Origin: Candidatus Altimarinota bacterium
Lineage (GTDB): Bacteria; Patescibacteriota; Gracilibacteria; BD1-5; UBA2023
DNA length: 37,400 bases
NCBI GenBank assembly: GCA_014377245.1
Contig: JACMPX010000029.1
Location: 1-37,400, forward strand
Direction: 5' to 3'
Positions 1,473-37,400 of the stretch are shown one piece after another; the first letter of the stretch is position 1, and each line of letters starts with the position of its first letter. The position numbers and the translations under genes were made by a program. The notes below the pieces were generated by a model. The model was not told the origin of the DNA. It was given only the letters and a program-made list of their open reading frames with translations, and did not search any database.

Positions 1473-2048
1473 ATGAAACATATTCTCTTTGATACTGATG
1501 ATGTCGTGGTACACTCCGATATGTGGAGTCAGGAATATTCTCGTAGAACTGGGATTACTACAGATATTATGATTCCATTTTTTCGATGAGTATTTCAAGA
1601 TTGTTTGGTATGAAAATCGGATCTAAAGGAGAGCTTGTCTCCATTTTTGTGAGAATGGTGATGGACTAAAAGTACTCAAGAATATCTCGATGCCTGGTTT
1701 GCATATGAGAATAATATCGATAAAAAACTAATAGAAAAGATAAGACAATATAGATGATATGGGATCCAGTGTCATGTTGCAACGAACCAGGAGAAGTATC
1801 GTCTAGCATACCTCAGAAACGAGATGTGATTTTCTAGAGAATTCGACTCAGTATTTTGTTCTTCCGAAATTGGACATAAGAAACCTGCAAGTGAATTTTA
1901 TACACATATTCTTGATGTGCTCGAGATAAAAGATACAAATGACATAGTCTATTATGATGATGCGGAAGAAAATATAGAAGCTGCGAAGAAACTATGAATC
2001 AACGCAATACTCTACAAAACAATTGATGATTTAGTTATATCCAATTAG
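1473..2048 (+). CDS. HAD-superfamily hydrolase (probable phosphatase)
   Basis: A 191-aa protein that starts 11 nt after the previous stop and is probably cotranscribed with it. Motif I is FDTDDVVVHSD (nucleophile D7, acid D9). Motif II is HVATNQ, motif III the Lys of GHKKPASEFY, and motif IV the acidic pair in YYDDAEENI followed by AAKKLGINA. This is the order and spacing of HAD phosphatases of the beta-phosphoglucomutase/5'-nucleotidase type with a helical cap. The substrate cannot be read from sequence. TGA-coded glycines are frequent (for example FFRGVFQD, FLGEWGW, KLGIN); the standard code would leave only fragments. The TAG stop overlaps the stop of the convergent ABC permease gene. Confidence 0.85.
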
Positions 2049-19504: not shown

Positions 19505-19555
19505 AGTATATCAGATAAAAGATTTTTTTGCAAAAAATGGCAGATTCTCTATAAT
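19505..19555. promoter_or_regulatory. Divergent promoters sharing one palindromic -35 (TTGCAA)
   Basis: TTGCAA (19528-19533) reads the same on both strands. Leftward: 17-nt spacer to TATACT (19510-19505) for the small membrane protein. Rightward: 16-nt spacer to TATAAT (19550-19555) for serS, whose ATG is at 19586. Both -10 boxes are near-perfect, so the single hexamer very likely serves both directions. Confidence 0.7.
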
Positions 19556-19585
19556 CCGATGTATATCCCCTCAATCCACCCAAAT

Positions 19586-20887
19586 ATGATCGATATCAAG
19601 ATACTGCGAACCAACCCTGAACTCATCAAAAAAACCCTCCATGATAAGGTCACCAAGTGAGTCGATCTCGACCGTGTGATCGCACTCGATGCTCAGCGTA
19701 TCGCTCTCGGGCAGGATCTCGATATCCTGCGTATGCGTCGCAACGATATATCAGCAAATATGGGATCGGGCAAGCCTGAGCCACATATCCTTGCCGAGGC
19801 GAAGGATATCAAGGAAAAAATCCAAAATCTCGAACCAGAATTTGAAAAAGTGGAAACAGAGTTCATCGATCTCTACAAGAAAATCCCAAATATCCCAACC
19901 GCAGATACTCCAGTCGGACTCACCGAAGAGGAGAATGTGATAGTGAAACAATGGGGAACAATTCGTGAGTTTGATTTTCCTATAAAAAACCACGCCGAGA
20001 TCGCAGCTGTACGAGGCTGGATCGACAAGGAGAGAGCCGCCAATGTCGCGGGTTCACGATTTGCCTATCTGATGGGAGATATCGTCCGCCTCCAGTTTTC
20101 CCTCATAGCATGGGTGATGGATACCCTCGGAGATAGATCCATATTGGCTCAGATCATTGCTGAACATGGGCTCTCTGTCTCAGACAAGCCGTTCACTCCA
20201 GTACTGCCTCCATATATGATCAAAACCGCTCCATACGATGCGATGGATCGTCTCGAACCACGAGAAGATAGATACAAGATCGAGGGTCATGATCTCTGGC
20301 TCCAGGGATCTGCTGAGCATGTGCTCGGTTCTATGCATGCAGGTGAGATATTCGCCGAGGCGGATATGCCAGTTCGCTACCTCGGGTATGCAACGAGTTT
20401 TCGCGGTGAGGCTGGGACCTACGGTAAGGACATGGAGGGGATCATCCGTATGCATCAGTTCGATAAGCTCGAGATGGAGTCATTCTCAACCGCTGAGACC
20501 TCACACGATGAGCATCTACTATTTGCTGGCATACAGGAATACATGATGCAACAACTTGAGATCCCATATCAGAAGCTCCAAAAGTGCACATATGACATCG
20601 GGAAACCGAATGCAAAATGATCAGATATCGAGGCGTGGCTCCCAGGACAACAACAGTACCGTGAGACACATACCGCTGACTATATGACTGACTATCAGTC
20701 TCGCCGTCTCCAGACTCGTGTTCGTAGATCATCAGGTGATGTCGAGCTCATCCATACCAACGATGCGACAGCATTCGCCTGCGGGCGTGCTCTCGTGGCG
20801 ATCATGGAGAACTATCAGAACGAGGATTGCACTGTGACAGTTCCGAAAGTGTTGAGGAATTATATAGGTGGGAAGGAGAGGATTTAG
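19586..20887 (+). CDS. serS: Seryl-tRNA synthetase
   Basis: A 433-aa class II synthetase of normal length. The N-terminal arm (about 30-110) is a coiled coil (LDILRMRRNDISANMG... KEKIQNLEPEFEKVE). The catalytic core has the motif 2 region GYATSFRGEAGTYGKDMEG and IIRMHQFDKLEMESF. Motif 3 near the C-terminus is ELIHTNDATAFACGRALVAIMENYQ, with the ATP-binding Arg. The enzyme charges tRNA-Ser in the cytoplasm. Only two of its glycines use TGA (TKGVDLD near residue 25, NAKGSD near 315), far fewer than in the exported unknown genes. Expression starts from the shared TTGCAA promoter. The start MIDIKILRTNPELI matches the family N-terminus. Confidence 0.96.
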
Positions 20888-20904: not shown

Positions 20905-21174
20905 ATGATTTATGCAGCAATAGTTTTAAAGGAAAATTCACAATGAAAAGGTTATGATTTAGAATTTTATTGAGAAAATATAATTCAAGAACGAGATCTA
21001 TGGAATATTAGAATTTTACCATATTACGATAATAAAACCTCAAAAGATATAAATTTTGATGGTTTATATTTGAATTCTAAAAGTAAAATTTTAGATCATT
21101 TAGCCGAAAGATGATTTGTTCCATGAGGAGATAATATTTTTTACAGAAAAGGATTTTTTGATTTTCTGAGATAA
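20905..21174 (+). CDS. AT-rich hypothetical protein, first gene of a two-gene island
   Basis: An 89-aa product (MIYAAIVLKENSQGKGYDL...), intact only with TGA as Gly (four codons, including NSQGKG and ERGFVPGG). It is a mixed alpha/beta chain without signal or membrane segment; no family is recognised. Codon use is extreme (TTA, AAT, GAT, TTT, AAA dominate), unlike serS immediately before it, which uses CTC, GAG and ATC. It ends 6 nt before the HEPN-like gene and is probably cotranscribed with it, which would suit a toxin-antitoxin or regulator-effector pair, but no nucleotidyltransferase (MNT) motif or other antitoxin mark is visible. Confidence 0.65.
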
Positions 21175-21180
21175 TAAAAA

Positions 21181-22146
21181 ATGAAAAAATACTATATCCA
21201 ATCAAGAGTGAGTACTGGAAATCAGATCCTTGCAAAATATACTCATAATGAGGATGAAAAAGATATAAAAAAGAGATTTGATTGTAGTTTTGAATATGAG
21301 TGATTAGATTTTGATCAATGGAATTTTTCTCATGCTCATTGAGCTCTTGGTGATGCATAGATTGTAAGTGGTGAAATTGAAGCCGATAATTCAACTGAAG
21401 CAATAAATATATACCTAAAGAAACAGAATGATATTCTGAGTAGAATATTTTTCTGTGTTCCTGTTTGGCATTCCTATGGATTCCACCATCATTTATTAAT
21501 ATCAACTGATGAATTTTACACATGATTTTATTTTATGAGAGTTGAAAGTAAATGAACAGGATTAGTGATTACCCCAGAAATATTATCTTCTATAAAAAAT
21601 CAAGATTTTACAAATATACCAAAGAAATTTTTCTCATTTTATGCTGAATATATAAATGCAACAACTGCTTTGGGATGATTGTCTCTTGGTTGTATTGCAA
21701 TGGAAAGTATTTTGCCTCACTGAAAAGATGCAAGAATAGATATTTTATGAGAAGATTTATATTATAGGATTTTTTCAAATGATAAAAATATATGAAGAAA
21801 ACAGGGTTTTAGAAATAGAATATTTCATGGTATATATTTTGATGATTGAGATAGTACACAAAAAGATTATGAGGATTTATTAGAAGCAATAAAACTGGCG
21901 CTTCTATCAAAAAATAAGAATATTGGAGATATATTTTCTTTACAGAAAAATTTTAAAAATATCCCAAGACAAAAAACCAGAATTGATTGATATTGATGAA
22001 TTTTTTTAAGATCAACTAGTGATTATAAGATAAGTATCAAAGATCTTGTAAATTCGGATAATATACTCTTTTATGAATTTCAAAAAAATATTCAGAATGA
22101 ATACTGAATTAAAACTGATATTCATTTAAAAATTGAAAATTACTAA
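21181..22146 (+). pseudogene. HEPN-like protein interrupted by an in-frame TAG
   Basis: The frame codes for 321 residues if the TAG at 21358-21360 (codon 60) is ignored. Both sides look coding, with the same very AT-rich codon use and TGA as Gly about 15 times. The C-terminal third contains GFRNRIFHGIYFDDG; RNRIFH (about 211-216) matches the R-x4-H motif of HEPN ribonuclease domains, followed by a long helix (DYEDLLEAIKLALLS) as in abortive-infection or Apea-like HEPN proteins. TAG is a normal stop in this window, so this is most simply a nonsense mutation (CAG to TAG fits one change) or a sequence error. Abundant TGA-Gly shows it has long lived in a code-25 host or a virus of one. A role in defence is inference. 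Confidence 0.6.
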
Positions 22147-22272
22147 AATAATTTATGCCCTTCCTACGCAATCCTCATCTCAATCTCACATCCCATTCTA
22201 GTTCTTTGTCTTCGTAGTTTCTTTGATATTCGTCGTGATCAGCATACAGTGAGATTTCACTTATTCTCCACT

Positions 22273-22755
22273 ATGATCATCAGATATAGTCTCATCGCAT
22301 CGCTCATTGCTCTCTCATCCTGCTCCAACTGAGTCGATACTCCGACACCACCAGTTATCAGCAACCCTCCAGTCGCCACATGAACTGTGGGTGGAGAGCT
22401 ACCACCGACGAGTGTGGCAACAGGCTCCACGCCTAAGTATACTCTCTCATTCGCGGATACGAATACTGGTACTGTGATCGTACGTCATATAACGGGAGTC
22501 AGGACTCATGTTTACTTCGTCAACTCGGATTCCAAGACAGCACGTGTCATCGTCACATTCCCAGGAGGTGCACAGGGCAATCTCCGCTGGTCTCAGGTCG
22601 TCATGCCAGATGGTAATATGGATGGGCCATTCGGACAAGATACGAACTATACACTGACACAAACTGGTAGATACGAGCTCATATTCCATGAGAATATGAT
22701 GACAGGAGATCCATGGACAGGAGATGCACAGATCGCCATAACTCTAGGGAAATAG
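22273..22755 (+). CDS. Small lipoprotein, unknown function
   Basis: A 160-aa protein. The N-terminus MIIRYSLIASLIALSSCSN carries a lipobox (LSSC, lipid on C17). A Pro/Thr/Val-rich linker (about 20-55) leads to an all-beta domain of about 100 residues (YTLSFADTNTGTVIVRH... GRYELIFHENMMTGDPWTGD). The beta-sandwich-like pattern fits a surface-exposed domain, but no family is recognised. TGA is Gly at residue 20 (SNGVD) and in VATGTVGG. The last ten codons and the start of the 3' flank are repeated with five mismatches about 1.56 kb downstream, which suggests that a paralogue once lay there. Confidence 0.75.
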
Positions 22756-22903: not shown

Positions 22904-22932
22904 TTGCATAGTACACAACAATATGATATTAT
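22904..22932 (+). promoter_or_regulatory. Predicted promoter
   Basis: TTGCAT (22904-22909), 17-nt spacer, TATTAT (22927-22932). The leader to the ATG at 22955 would be about 16 nt with no Shine-Dalgarno sequence. Confidence 0.5.
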
Positions 22933-22954
22933 GATTTTAGCATATCATATATAT

Positions 22955-23821
22955 ATGAATTCTCTATCACAAATATCTAGGACTAATTATACAGATTCCC
23001 CCAATACCCTATTACCAGTAAATAATCAGGTATCCTATTCTCAAAGTGATCGTGTTACAGATGTCAGGAATGACACACAGGATAGACTTCAGTGAGTATT
23101 GAGAGATACTATCTGATCTATTGGTATCGGTGATCTCACATTTCCCCAAATATGAGCAGCTGAAAATCCAGTAATCTTTGAGACGTGAGATCACTATACA
23201 TCAGTGGCCCCTACTGCTACCTTACCCGATGGCATAGATGTCTATACGATGCGATATGGTATCACTACTATCAGTAGTGCACCTCCATTCACTGCTATAT
23301 CGCTCTTGTTTAGGAACCCCGATGGACATATCTCTCATCAATGAGTGATAGGTAGAGATTCTCGCATAGAAGAATACCATGCTATAGCAGAGGAGGTCGC
23401 AACTCATCTGGCGTGACCTGATATGACAGCTAGATCTATATCACTGAGTGAAGTACTGAAAGAGGTACGAGAAGTATGAGATGATCTCGGCAATATCTAC
23501 CATATGTGAGTGAACCCGAGATGAGAGAGTATCTACCTCACGACACTCTATGAGATTGGAACTGATATCGTCTGACTCCAATTCGAACTCAGGAAATTCA
23601 TCGATAAAGACTGACAAAACTCTATCTATATCTGAGGAATGGCGAATAGTGGATCTATCAAGATCGCAACGGCTATGAAATATATCCTCACACGAGGGGT
23701 CAAGCTGGGTATTGATAATGATTGGAGAGTTTACTTCTTCCGGGATGATGCACATACTGATACTAGTGCAGTTCGAACAGTAGCAGAATACTATAGAATA
23801 GCTGGAATGCATCGATCTTAA
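22955..23821 (+). CDS. Hypothetical protein, TGA-rich, no recognised domain
   Basis: A 288-aa product with about fifteen TGA-Gly codons, invisible as a whole in the standard code. It has no signal peptide and no membrane segment. The N-terminal 45 residues are polar and probably disordered (Ser/Asn/Asp/Gln); the rest is a mixed alpha/beta fold with features DGIDVYTMRYGITTISSAPP, HGVIGRD-like HQGVIGRDSRIEEYHAIAEEV and NSIYIGGMANSGSIKIATAMK. No enzyme motif is recognised. It has its own promoter and is followed after 13 nt by a second unknown gene. Both lie between two copies of a lipoprotein-gene 3' end, which hints that the block was inserted or that a paralogue decayed next to it. Confidence 0.7.
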
Positions 23822-23834
23822 TATACTATATAAT

Positions 23835-24248
23835 ATGCCATCAAAAACACCAATACATACAACACCAATACGCTCATATGTTGGACTCTCTCAGCAAGCT
23901 ATTGACAAGCAAGCTTGAGAGACCTACCTGAGCATGTGTGCGGTGCAGTCATCAATAACTATTATACAAGTTATAGATAATTATATCAGCAATAGTCTTG
24001 ATATAGTTATGAGTCCTGATGATAGCTCGAGTTCTCGACTCGATGCTCTCCTGATCGTCGAATGAATACTAGAAATATATGCAGAATTAAATCCTAATAG
24101 TTTAAACAGCGAATGGTATGCGGGAACAATACAAGAAATCATAAATACAATAAAGAAAGAGAGAATTAGGCTCAAGGAACTCTGAGTCAAGAGTATTCCA
24201 AATATTCCAAAAGCACACATTTATGTTGCAAGAATACTCTGAGAATAG
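23835..24248 (+). CDS. Hypothetical helical protein
   Basis: A 137-aa protein beginning MPSKTPIHTTPIRSYVGLSQQ, with four TGA-Gly codons (KQAGETY, VEGILEI, ELGVKS, ILGE). Mostly helical, no membrane segment or signal. No family is recognised. It follows the 288-aa gene by 13 nt and is probably cotranscribed. The stop is TAG, 31 nt before the truncated lipoprotein repeat. Confidence 0.65.
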
Positions 24249-36169: not shown

Positions 36170-36385
36170 TTATTCCATTCCTGTTATATTAGCAGCTTTT
36201 TTTGCTACTGCAGTTGATATTGTATAGCTAGTCTTTTTTCAAGAGAATGCTGAGGGAGGCTGAGAGCTTAATCATTTTTCATCTAATACTCTTTGTGCTA
36301 AGGCTTTTGCTCTATGTCATTTGGGATCTCTCAAATCAGGCATAGTAATCCATCTTCATGACCAAGAGTCAAATATTTCAGCCAT
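36170..36385 (-). CDS. Small basic protein, unknown, read only with TGA = Gly
   Basis: A 71-aa product beginning MAEIFDSWSGRWITMPDLRD and ending with the Lys/Ala/Thr-rich tail AVAKKAANITGME before TAA. Four of its five glycines are TGA, so standard-code callers would miss it. Charged N-terminal half, helix AKALAQRVLDEKG, no membrane segment. The family is not recognised. It lies between the RlmL-like gene (convergent) and another small protein on the same strand, 41 nt after that gene's stop. Confidence 0.65.
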
Positions 36386-36426
36386 ATATAAAAAGGTTAA
36401 TAATTTTTATTATTCTACTCATGCGA

Positions 36427-36792
36427 TTACTTGATTCCAAGGAATCCTTTGATTTTTTTGAATACTCCTCCTACATTCTTTGTTGCGAATTGTTTGACTT
36501 GATCCATGTCAGTATTCTTCACAGCATCTTTTACATTATCGATAGCCTCAGATATACCCGTCTTACCGTCACCATCGACATCCTTACCTATGAACTCCTT
36601 GATTGCTTCCATAGCATTTTTGAAATCAATCTCAGGGAGATCTGTTGTATCTATACCGACCTTCGCAGCTGCTGCCTTGAATCCATCAGACATGATACTC
36701 GATTCGAACTTGTCACCGAGACCTGATTTGAGCTTCTCTATAATATCAGATGATATTCCTGATGCTTTGAGTTTTTTGATAATATCGTCCAT
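36427..36792 (-). CDS. Small helical protein with an EF-hand-like Asp loop
   Basis: A 121-aa acidic helical protein. It starts MDDIIKKLKASGISSDIIEK and carries one loop DVDGDGKTGISEAI (about 75-88), which matches the calcium-binding DxDxDG...E pattern of EF-hands and dockerin repeats. The rest is amphipathic helix, ending VGGVFKKIKGFLGIK, a basic tail that could touch membrane. Function is unknown; calcium or magnesium binding is plausible from the motif. A longer in-frame start at 36903 would add 37 hydrophobic residues but would start inside the terminator, so the ATG at 36792 is chosen. No TGA codon. Confidence 0.7.
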   Translation of the reverse strand: MDDIIKKLKASGISSDIIEKLKSGLGDKFESSIMSDGFKAAAAKVGIDTTDLPEIDFKNAMEAIKEFIGKDVDGDGKTGISEAIDNVKDAVKNTDMDQVKQFATKNVGGVFKKIKGFLGIK

Positions 36793-36893
36793 GAGAAAAA
36801 GTGAAAAGGTATAAACACAAAGAGTATAAGTAAAATATATCCAAATAAAAAAAGAAATATTTATTTTGCTTGCCAATTTTATTTTATATACAT

Positions 36894-36923
36894 AAAAAAA
36901 CACCTCATTTGAGGTGTTTTTTT
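36894..36923. terminator. Bidirectional hairpin terminator
   Basis: CACCTCAT/TTGAGGTG (36901-36916) flanked by A7 on the left and T7 on the right, so a U tract exists on both strands. It ends the collagen-like gene on the minus strand. Confidence 0.85.
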
Positions 36924-36937
36924 ATGACGAGAATATA

Positions 36938-37400
36938 CTAGAGTGTTGTCGCACATATAGCATATGCTGTGAGCGTCCAAGTATTATTACCGCTTGCCAC
37001 TCGATCTACTGAAATAGTCCAAGTGTTTGTAGCACTAGGAAAACTGGCACTATTTGCAGTTCATACCGAAGATGTGAATCCACCTCAGATAACACTTTTT
37101 CCACTTGGACAAGTAGCTACTTGTGTTCTTGTTGCTGTAGTTGCACTAGCACCAGTAGTCTGAACTATCTCATACCCACTCACTCAATTGACACCATTTG
37201 TACCACCTGTTCATGCTGCTCATTTTGCTCAAGTGGCTCCAGTTCCTCCGATTGCTCATGCAGGTCCAGCTATTCCAGCAGGTCCTGTAGCACCAGTTCC
37301 TCCGATTGCTCATGCAGGTCCAGCTATTCCAGCAGGTCCTGTAGCACCAGTTCCTCCGATTGCTCATGCAGGTCCTGTAGCACCAGTTCCTCCAGTAGCA
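36938..37400 (-). CDS. Collagen-like repeat protein (5' end outside window)
   Basis: The minus-strand frame is open from the window edge to TAG (36938-36940), giving 153 visible residues. The first part is a Gly-rich repeat with Ala/Pro/Ile/Thr (GATGPAG, GIAGPAGAIGG), close to collagen-like G-X-Y order, then GVNGVSGYEIV and a C-terminal domain (about 100 residues: QVATCPSGKSVIGGGFTSSV... NTWTISVDRVASGNNTWTLT) like the compact beta caps that end collagen-like surface fibres. Gly is coded by GGA, GGT and TGA mixed, with one TGA per repeat. A cell-surface or attachment role is likely by analogy; none is proven. Confidence 0.8.
37239..37400 (-). repeat. 54-bp tandem repeat in the collagen-like gene
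   Basis: Copies start at 37239 and 37293 (identical 54-mers). The copy at 37347 has lost 18 bp in the middle and is followed by a partial copy at 37383. The unit codes for 18 residues and includes one TGA glycine. The array runs off the window. Confidence 0.9.

What the first reader, a model, noticed from the sequence alone, without database searches (positions are those of the whole stretch)
20905..22146. AT-rich two-gene island with a HEPN-like protein
Base composition changes abruptly after the serS stop and returns at about 22150; codons shift to TTA, AAT, GAT and TTT. The second protein carries RNRIFH, a fit to the R-x4-H HEPN ribonuclease motif, followed by a long helix. A small gene directly precedes it. 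Both use TGA-Gly heavily, so the donor must share the altered code, perhaps a phage or plasmid of the same lineage. It could be an undescribed toxin-antitoxin or abortive-infection pair.
Basis: partly seen in the sequence, partly recalled or inferred. Interest (0 to 1): 0.62.

Follow-up and report, generated by a model that had tools for sequence, protein, structure and literature searches.

The report
Broken HEPN gene in swap site
A foreign, AT-rich gene pair sits in a chromosomal slot where each related species keeps a different insert; one gene encodes a probable RNA-cutting (HEPN) protein of the kind used in phage defence, and in this genome it is interrupted by a stop codon, so it is a neat but fairly ordinary relic of gene exchange.

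Summary
In detail: 20905-22146 is the most AT-rich stretch of the window (25% GC against 41%), with shifted codon usage, and carries two co-directional genes using TGA as glycine. One point was missed: the second gene has an in-frame TAG at codon 60 (21358-21360). Two full-length homologues in other Gracilibacteria, 24-35% identical, align straight across the TAG, so this is one 322-codon gene interrupted here.

The HEPN reading is supported at superfamily level. The motif G-x-R-x-R-x2-H-G-x-Y-F is the most conserved block of the family. Its profile matches the MAE_28990 HEPN family better than all 300 shuffled profiles. Structure prediction was too poor to test the fold.

The toxin-antitoxin reading is not supported. 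The small gene has no detectable relative, and both homologues stand without it.

The locus is a gene-swap slot: between serS and a GNAT acetyltransferase or lipoprotein gene, five congeneric species carry different cargo, one of them an AriA/PtuA-like defence ATPase. In this genome the GNAT gene survives only as a deleted remnant directly behind the island.

Best reading: a horizontally acquired two-domain HEPN RNase, probably for phage defence, now interrupted. It is a new small family of a known kind.

The parts
20905..22146 (+). AT-rich two-gene island (GC 25%); cargo of the serS-GNAT slot, DNA boundaries about 20910 and 22144
   Evidence: composition; boundaries from G447 alignment
20905..21174 (+). 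small gene P0002, 89 aa, no detectable relative; stop 6 nt before the ATG of the second gene
21181..22146 (+). HEPN-like gene, 322 codons, interrupted at codon 60; read through as P0001/P0003
21358..21360 (+). in-frame TAG (codon 60) at a column where both homologues have a sense codon
21181..21540 (+). N-terminal alpha/beta domain (about residues 1-120, predicted beta-rich with one helix; low confidence)
21628..21909 (+). all-helical HEPN-like domain (about residues 150-243)
21811..21828 (+). R-x4-H motif RNRIFH, within the invariant block G-x-R-x-R-x2-H-G-x-Y-F
   Evidence: motif definition PMC3710099
21535..22146 (+). longest ATG-initiated frame after the TAG (203 aa), keeps the HEPN motif; no obvious ribosome-binding site
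   Evidence: sequence
22155..22201 (+). remnant of a GNAT acetyltransferase gene: first ~12 codons joined to the last ~6, about 480 bp of the gene missing
19544..20887 (+). serS, left conserved flank of the slot
22291..22755 (+). lipoprotein-like gene, right conserved flank of the slot

Best explanation
The island is a recently acquired, species-specific cargo in a chromosomal slot between serS and a GNAT/lipoprotein gene, where each species of this Gracilibacteria genus carries something different. Its main gene encodes a protein of about 320 aa with an N-terminal alpha/beta domain and a C-terminal HEPN domain. The likely mechanism is that the N-terminal domain holds the HEPN domain off and senses infection or stress, and on activation the R-x4-H site, probably in a dimer, cuts cellular or phage RNA and stops growth (single-gene abortive infection). 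In this genome the gene is interrupted by an in-frame TAG, so the full-length protein is not expected to be made and the copy is probably decaying. The small upstream gene is passenger or accessory cargo of unknown role. Shown here: foreign composition, slot boundaries, cargo turnover, the homologous family, motif conservation, the interruption. Inferred: RNase activity, autoinhibition by the N-terminal domain, a defence role.
For: Composition. The gene is in 3 of 353 class genomes and absent from the four congeners. DNA homology with G447 runs through the serS stop to 20909 and restarts at 22145 in a GNAT remnant. Slot cargo differs in five species, including P0008 in G509, an AAA_15 ATPase matching AriA (1.4e-25) and PtuA models. 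The HEPN motif block is invariant among sequences 24-35% identical. The only Pfam family touched by the G459 homologue over the motif is HEPN_MAE_28990, E 0.01-0.06, below its cut-off. hhalign score 30.2 with the R-x4-HG motifs in register, against a maximum of 23.0 in 300 column shuffles. In the MAE_28990 family itself the gene sits beside DUF262 and restriction-modification genes. The G459 homologue is also AT-richer than its neighbours (31% against 43-46%) and lies about 225 bp from a tRNA-Lys gene.
Against: No curated model is passed. AlphaFold models are of low confidence and fold searches found no HEPN structure. The two homologues lie among housekeeping genes (recJ, aroB; secA, ruvA), not in a defence island. 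PADLOC has no model for the family. Only one of the other slot cargos is recognisably defence-like. No activity data exist.
Confidence: 0.6

Rival explanations
1. A two-gene toxin-antitoxin module: the 89-aa upstream gene encodes an antitoxin that binds or modifies the HEPN toxin encoded behind it.
For: Antitoxin-first order, a 6-nt gap and shared composition; HEPN domains are toxins in MNT-HEPN pairs with the antitoxin gene upstream (PMC3710099).
Against: Both homologous HEPN genes stand without the small gene. P0002 has no relative anywhere searched and no nucleotidyltransferase (MNT) match. The gene before the G549 homologue is an unrelated lipoprotein. The conserved Tyr is at H+3, not the H+2 of the HepT R-x4-H-x-Y motif (that motif is from memory).
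Confidence: 0.1
2. The TAG is not a real interruption: it is a sequencing or assembly error, or is read through, and the full-length protein is made.
For: It is the only defect in an otherwise perfect 322-codon frame, and the genome is a draft metagenome assembly (54 contigs, 80% complete).
Against: TAG ends serS and several other genes. No CTA-anticodon tRNA was found among the tRNAs detected, but that list is incomplete: it also lacks the tRNA for TGA.
Confidence: 0.25
3. A lineage-specific RNA-binding or RNA-processing protein with a HEPN-like domain and no role in defence.
For: Homologues lie between housekeeping genes, and there is no PADLOC match.
Against: Sporadic presence in 3 of 353 genomes, AT-rich composition relative to neighbours in two of the three, and a swap slot shared with a defence-type ATPase. 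The complete R-x4-H motif suggests catalysis.
Confidence: 0.2
4. Not HEPN at all: the motif match is coincidental in an unrelated helical protein.
For: R-x4-H alone is weak, the structure searches were inconclusive, and no curated score is passed.
Against: The motif is the densest invariant block of the family, sits before the last long helix, has a polar residue after R as in HEPN, and an upstream invariant Glu (PMC3710099). The profile comparison beats 300 of 300 shuffles.
Confidence: 0.15

Closest known systems
MAE_28990/MAE_18760-like HEPN family (Pfam PF18737)
   Same: Best and only Pfam match over the motif; R-[NH]-x3-H-G motif followed by a long helix; mobile, on plasmids and viral contigs.
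   Different: Score below the curated cut-off; our family has its own ~120-aa N-terminal alpha/beta domain and no DUF262 partner gene.
HepT/MntA (HEPN-MNT) toxin-antitoxin systems
   Same: HEPN domain with R-x4-H behind a small upstream gene.
   Different: No nucleotidyltransferase; the upstream gene is not conserved; conserved Tyr at H+3.
ApeA and AbiJ type single-gene HEPN abortive-infection proteins
   Same: Architecture of variable N-terminal domain plus C-terminal HEPN (PMC3710099).
   Different: No match to these profiles; about 300 aa, with a different N-terminal domain.
Core-gene-flanked defence hotspots (for example Pseudomonas aeruginosa core defense hotspots, PMC10250203, listed; not read)
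   Same: Fixed flanking genes with exchangeable cargo including defence genes.
   Different: A small slot carrying one or two genes, in a TGA=Gly Gracilibacteria genus; the defence nature of most cargos is not established.

Membership tests
HEPN superfamily | R-x4-6-H motif with a polar residue after R | tested here: met
   RNRIFH, RHRLSH and RHRIIH in three members; definition in PMC3710099
HEPN superfamily | all-helical domain of about 100-120 aa with the four-helix core | tested here: inconclusive
   Helical in the model with the motif before the last long helix, but pLDDT only 51; fold searches not informative
HEPN superfamily | profile similarity to a known HEPN family | tested here: met
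   hhalign against MAE_28990: score 30.2, 0 of 300 shuffles reach it, reversed profile 15.1; hhalign's own probability is only 18%
HEPN superfamily | upstream acidic residue, typically E-x3-[KR] | tested here: inconclusive
   Glu invariant (E175); the +4 basic residue only in the G459 member
HEPN superfamily | metal-independent RNase activity | not testable with these tools
   needs biochemistry
HEPN_MAE_28990 (PF18737) | score over the curated cut-off of 26.8 bits | tested here: not met
   best 16.4 bits with the core of the G459 homologue; no hit with the window protein
HEPN_MAE_28990 (PF18737) | operon with DUF262/ParB-type nuclease | tested here: not met
   no such neighbour in the window, L006 or L007; present beside true members
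HEPN-MNT toxin-antitoxin | adjacent minimal nucleotidyltransferase gene | tested here: not met
   P0002 has no Pfam or NCBIfam match; homologues lack it
Toxin-antitoxin pair (any) | conserved co-occurrence of the two genes | tested here: not met
   P0002 found only in this genome; the HEPN gene occurs alone in two others
HEPN_Apea / ApeA | match to PF18739 or a PADLOC model | tested here: inconclusive
   no hmmscan match; the genome search with PF18739 rang nowhere, controls included
Variable genomic slot / hotspot | same flanks, different cargo in related genomes | tested here: met
   five congeners, serS flank in all, lipoprotein in four, GNAT intact in three
Defence hotspot | most cargos are known defence genes | tested here: inconclusive
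   one AriA/PtuA-like ATPase; the other cargos unrecognised or only generic AAA

The most novel reading that the evidence does not exclude
The serS-GNAT slot is a dedicated defence hotspot of TGA=Gly Gracilibacteria, and the HEPN protein founds an undescribed single-gene abortive-infection family with a new N-terminal sensor domain that has moved between TGA=Gly and TGA=stop lineages.
Probability: 0.3. Interest if true: 0.55.

Novelty: new member of a known kind. Interest (0 to 1): 0.36.

Why it matters
It adds a small, previously unlisted HEPN-like family found only in Gracilibacteria so far, and it maps a precise, recurrently refilled slot in a genus with a changed genetic code. Such slots in tiny host-dependent genomes are where new defence genes can be sought. 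Members on both sides of the TGA code change give a natural test of whether defence genes cross that barrier. As a single locus it is modest, because the copy in this window is broken.

Tried and rejected
Family libraries for both proteins: nothing. Phage and plasmid protein searches with the window protein and both homologues: nothing. Five viral-contig scans with the proteins or core alignments of this locus (HEPN-like family and P0002): nothing. The genome-contig scan returned only the two homologues already known. The hit in G647 is a short C-terminal match without a matching gene and was not counted. Two AlphaFold jobs with three-sequence alignments gave pLDDT 43 and 51; the Foldseek and VIA-align lists contain only middling matches, nearly all to the N-terminal part, and no HEPN structure, which is not evidence either way. 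Searching an artificial family consensus against Pfam gave the same weak MAE_28990 match. Promoter and terminator scan: no excess over shuffles. No long flanking repeats or tRNA at the island. The tRNA list cannot exclude an amber suppressor, because it also misses the tRNA for TGA. Apea family search: no control rang.

Full report
Observation. The stretch 20905-22146 is the lowest-GC segment of the window (25.4%; mean of equal-sized stretches 40.8%, sd 3.6; lowest elsewhere 34.5%). Third-position GC, leucine and arginine codon choice shift by 3 to 10 standard deviations from the other genes of the window. Two genes run on the + strand: P0002 (20905-21174, 89 aa) and, 6 nt after its stop, a 322-codon frame 21181-22146. 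TGA supplies 17 of 31 glycines in the two genes, which fits code 25 but is within the range of the other genes (0-75%).

A missed detail. The second frame has an in-frame TAG at codon 60. With the whole frame as query, two other genomes of the class gave homologues aligning from residue 34 onward, on both sides of the TAG: G459 (L004/L006, 296 aa, Ca. Gracilibacteria Tobar13m-G49, JAIPJB010000001.1; no TGA in the gene, and recJ and gyrA end in TGA, so TGA is a stop there) and G549 (L005/L007, 314 aa, 19 TGA-Gly codons). The three-way alignment is ungapped over the TAG column, where both homologues have tryptophan. TAG ends serS and several other genes of the window. The gene is therefore interrupted, unless the base is an assembly error. 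A search limited to the 203-aa downstream frame, in a different sample of 380 genomes of the phylum, found only itself.

Family and domain. Members are 24-35% identical. Of 42 invariant columns, seven fall in the 12 residues G-x-R-x-R-x2-H-G-x-Y-F around the R-x4-H motif, the densest block, and an upstream Glu is invariant. This is the pattern described for HEPN: Rx4-6H, a polar residue after R, and an acidic residue upstream (PMC3710099). hmmscan finds only HEPN_MAE_28990 over the motif, below its cut-off (E 0.06 for the G459 homologue, 0.01 for its core). I built an alignment of eight MAE_28990 members and compared profiles: score 30.2, motifs in register. Column shuffles gave mean 13.5 and maximum 23.0 (0 of 300 reach 30.2), and the reversed profile 15.1. 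hhalign's own probability is low (18%), and much of the signal is the motif with the last helix. The AlphaFold models (pLDDT 43 and 51) show an N-terminal alpha/beta domain and a helical C-terminal domain with the motif before the last long helix, but they are too uncertain for fold searches. I conclude that HEPN membership is probable at superfamily level and that the protein is not a member of MAE_28990.

Distribution. In all 353 genomes of the class, the family profile finds only the window genome, G549 and G459, plus one spurious short match; the four congeners lack it. No relative was found in phages, plasmids or viral contigs. P0002 was found nowhere else. The G459 gene lies between recJ/tRNA-Lys and a TspO-like gene/aroB; the G549 gene lies between a lipoprotein gene and ruvA (gene names by my reading of the translations). 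Neither has P0002, so a conserved pair is not supported.

The slot. In five species of the genus serS is followed by different genes before a common GNAT and/or lipoprotein gene. G447 has a 77-aa gene, then GNAT and lipoprotein. G633 has a 1058-aa orphan, then GNAT and lipoprotein. G509 has an AAA_15 ATPase of 502 aa, a tRNA-Ser and a transporter, then lipoprotein. G610 has a Lon-like AAA gene, then GNAT. The G509 ATPase matches AriA (1.4e-25) and PtuA models and is 28% GC. Against G447, DNA homology runs through the serS stop to 20909 (the ATG of P0002). It restarts at 22145 in the first codons of GNAT (22155 onward), then jumps about 480 bp to the end of GNAT and continues into the lipoprotein gene. 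The island thus occupies exactly the cargo position of the slot, and the neighbouring GNAT gene has been lost by an internal deletion.

Mechanism. Shown: acquisition into a defined slot, a conserved HEPN motif in a two-domain protein, interruption in this genome. Inferred: the intact protein is an RNase kept silent by its N-terminal domain and released on infection or stress, stopping translation by RNA cleavage, as other HEPN defence proteins do (PMC3710099). The interruption would remove the N-terminal control domain from any product restarted downstream; a free HEPN domain could be harmful, so the copy is more likely silent or inactive than a working toxin.

Verdict. This is a new small family of a known kind in a variable slot.

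Noticed in passing
22155-22201: Remnant of a GNAT acetyltransferase gene (start and end joined, ~480 bp missing); intact in G447, G633 and G610 at the same place.
   Followed up: yes
L018 10426-11931 (G509): The same slot in a congener carries a 502-aa AAA_15 ATPase resembling AriA/PtuA/OLD defence ATPases, 28% GC, next to a tRNA-Ser gene.
   Followed up: partly
L017 7161-10337 (G633): The same slot in another congener carries a 1058-aa AT-rich orphan protein (34 TGA-Gly codons) without recognisable domains.
   Followed up: partly
L006 5702-6891: In G459 the HEPN homologue (31% GC among 43-46% genes) starts about 225 bp after a tRNA-Lys gene, a typical insertion point.
   Followed up: partly
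window 1473-2048, 22904-23821, 23835-24248, 36358-36960: TGA supplies 48-75% of glycines in these ORFs but 0-10% in several others, a wide spread within one genome; the two ORFs tested (22904-23821, 23835-24248) have no Pfam match and no significant PHROG match.
   Followed up: no
own genome G000: The tRNA search found no tRNA with anticodon TCA, although TGA is clearly a sense codon; probably missing from the 80% complete assembly or not recognised.
   Followed up: no
L024 356-2106 (G098): A true MAE_28990 HEPN gene behind a DUF262-like gene in another Patescibacteria genome, the same pair as on plasmids L052, L053 and L055.
   Followed up: partly
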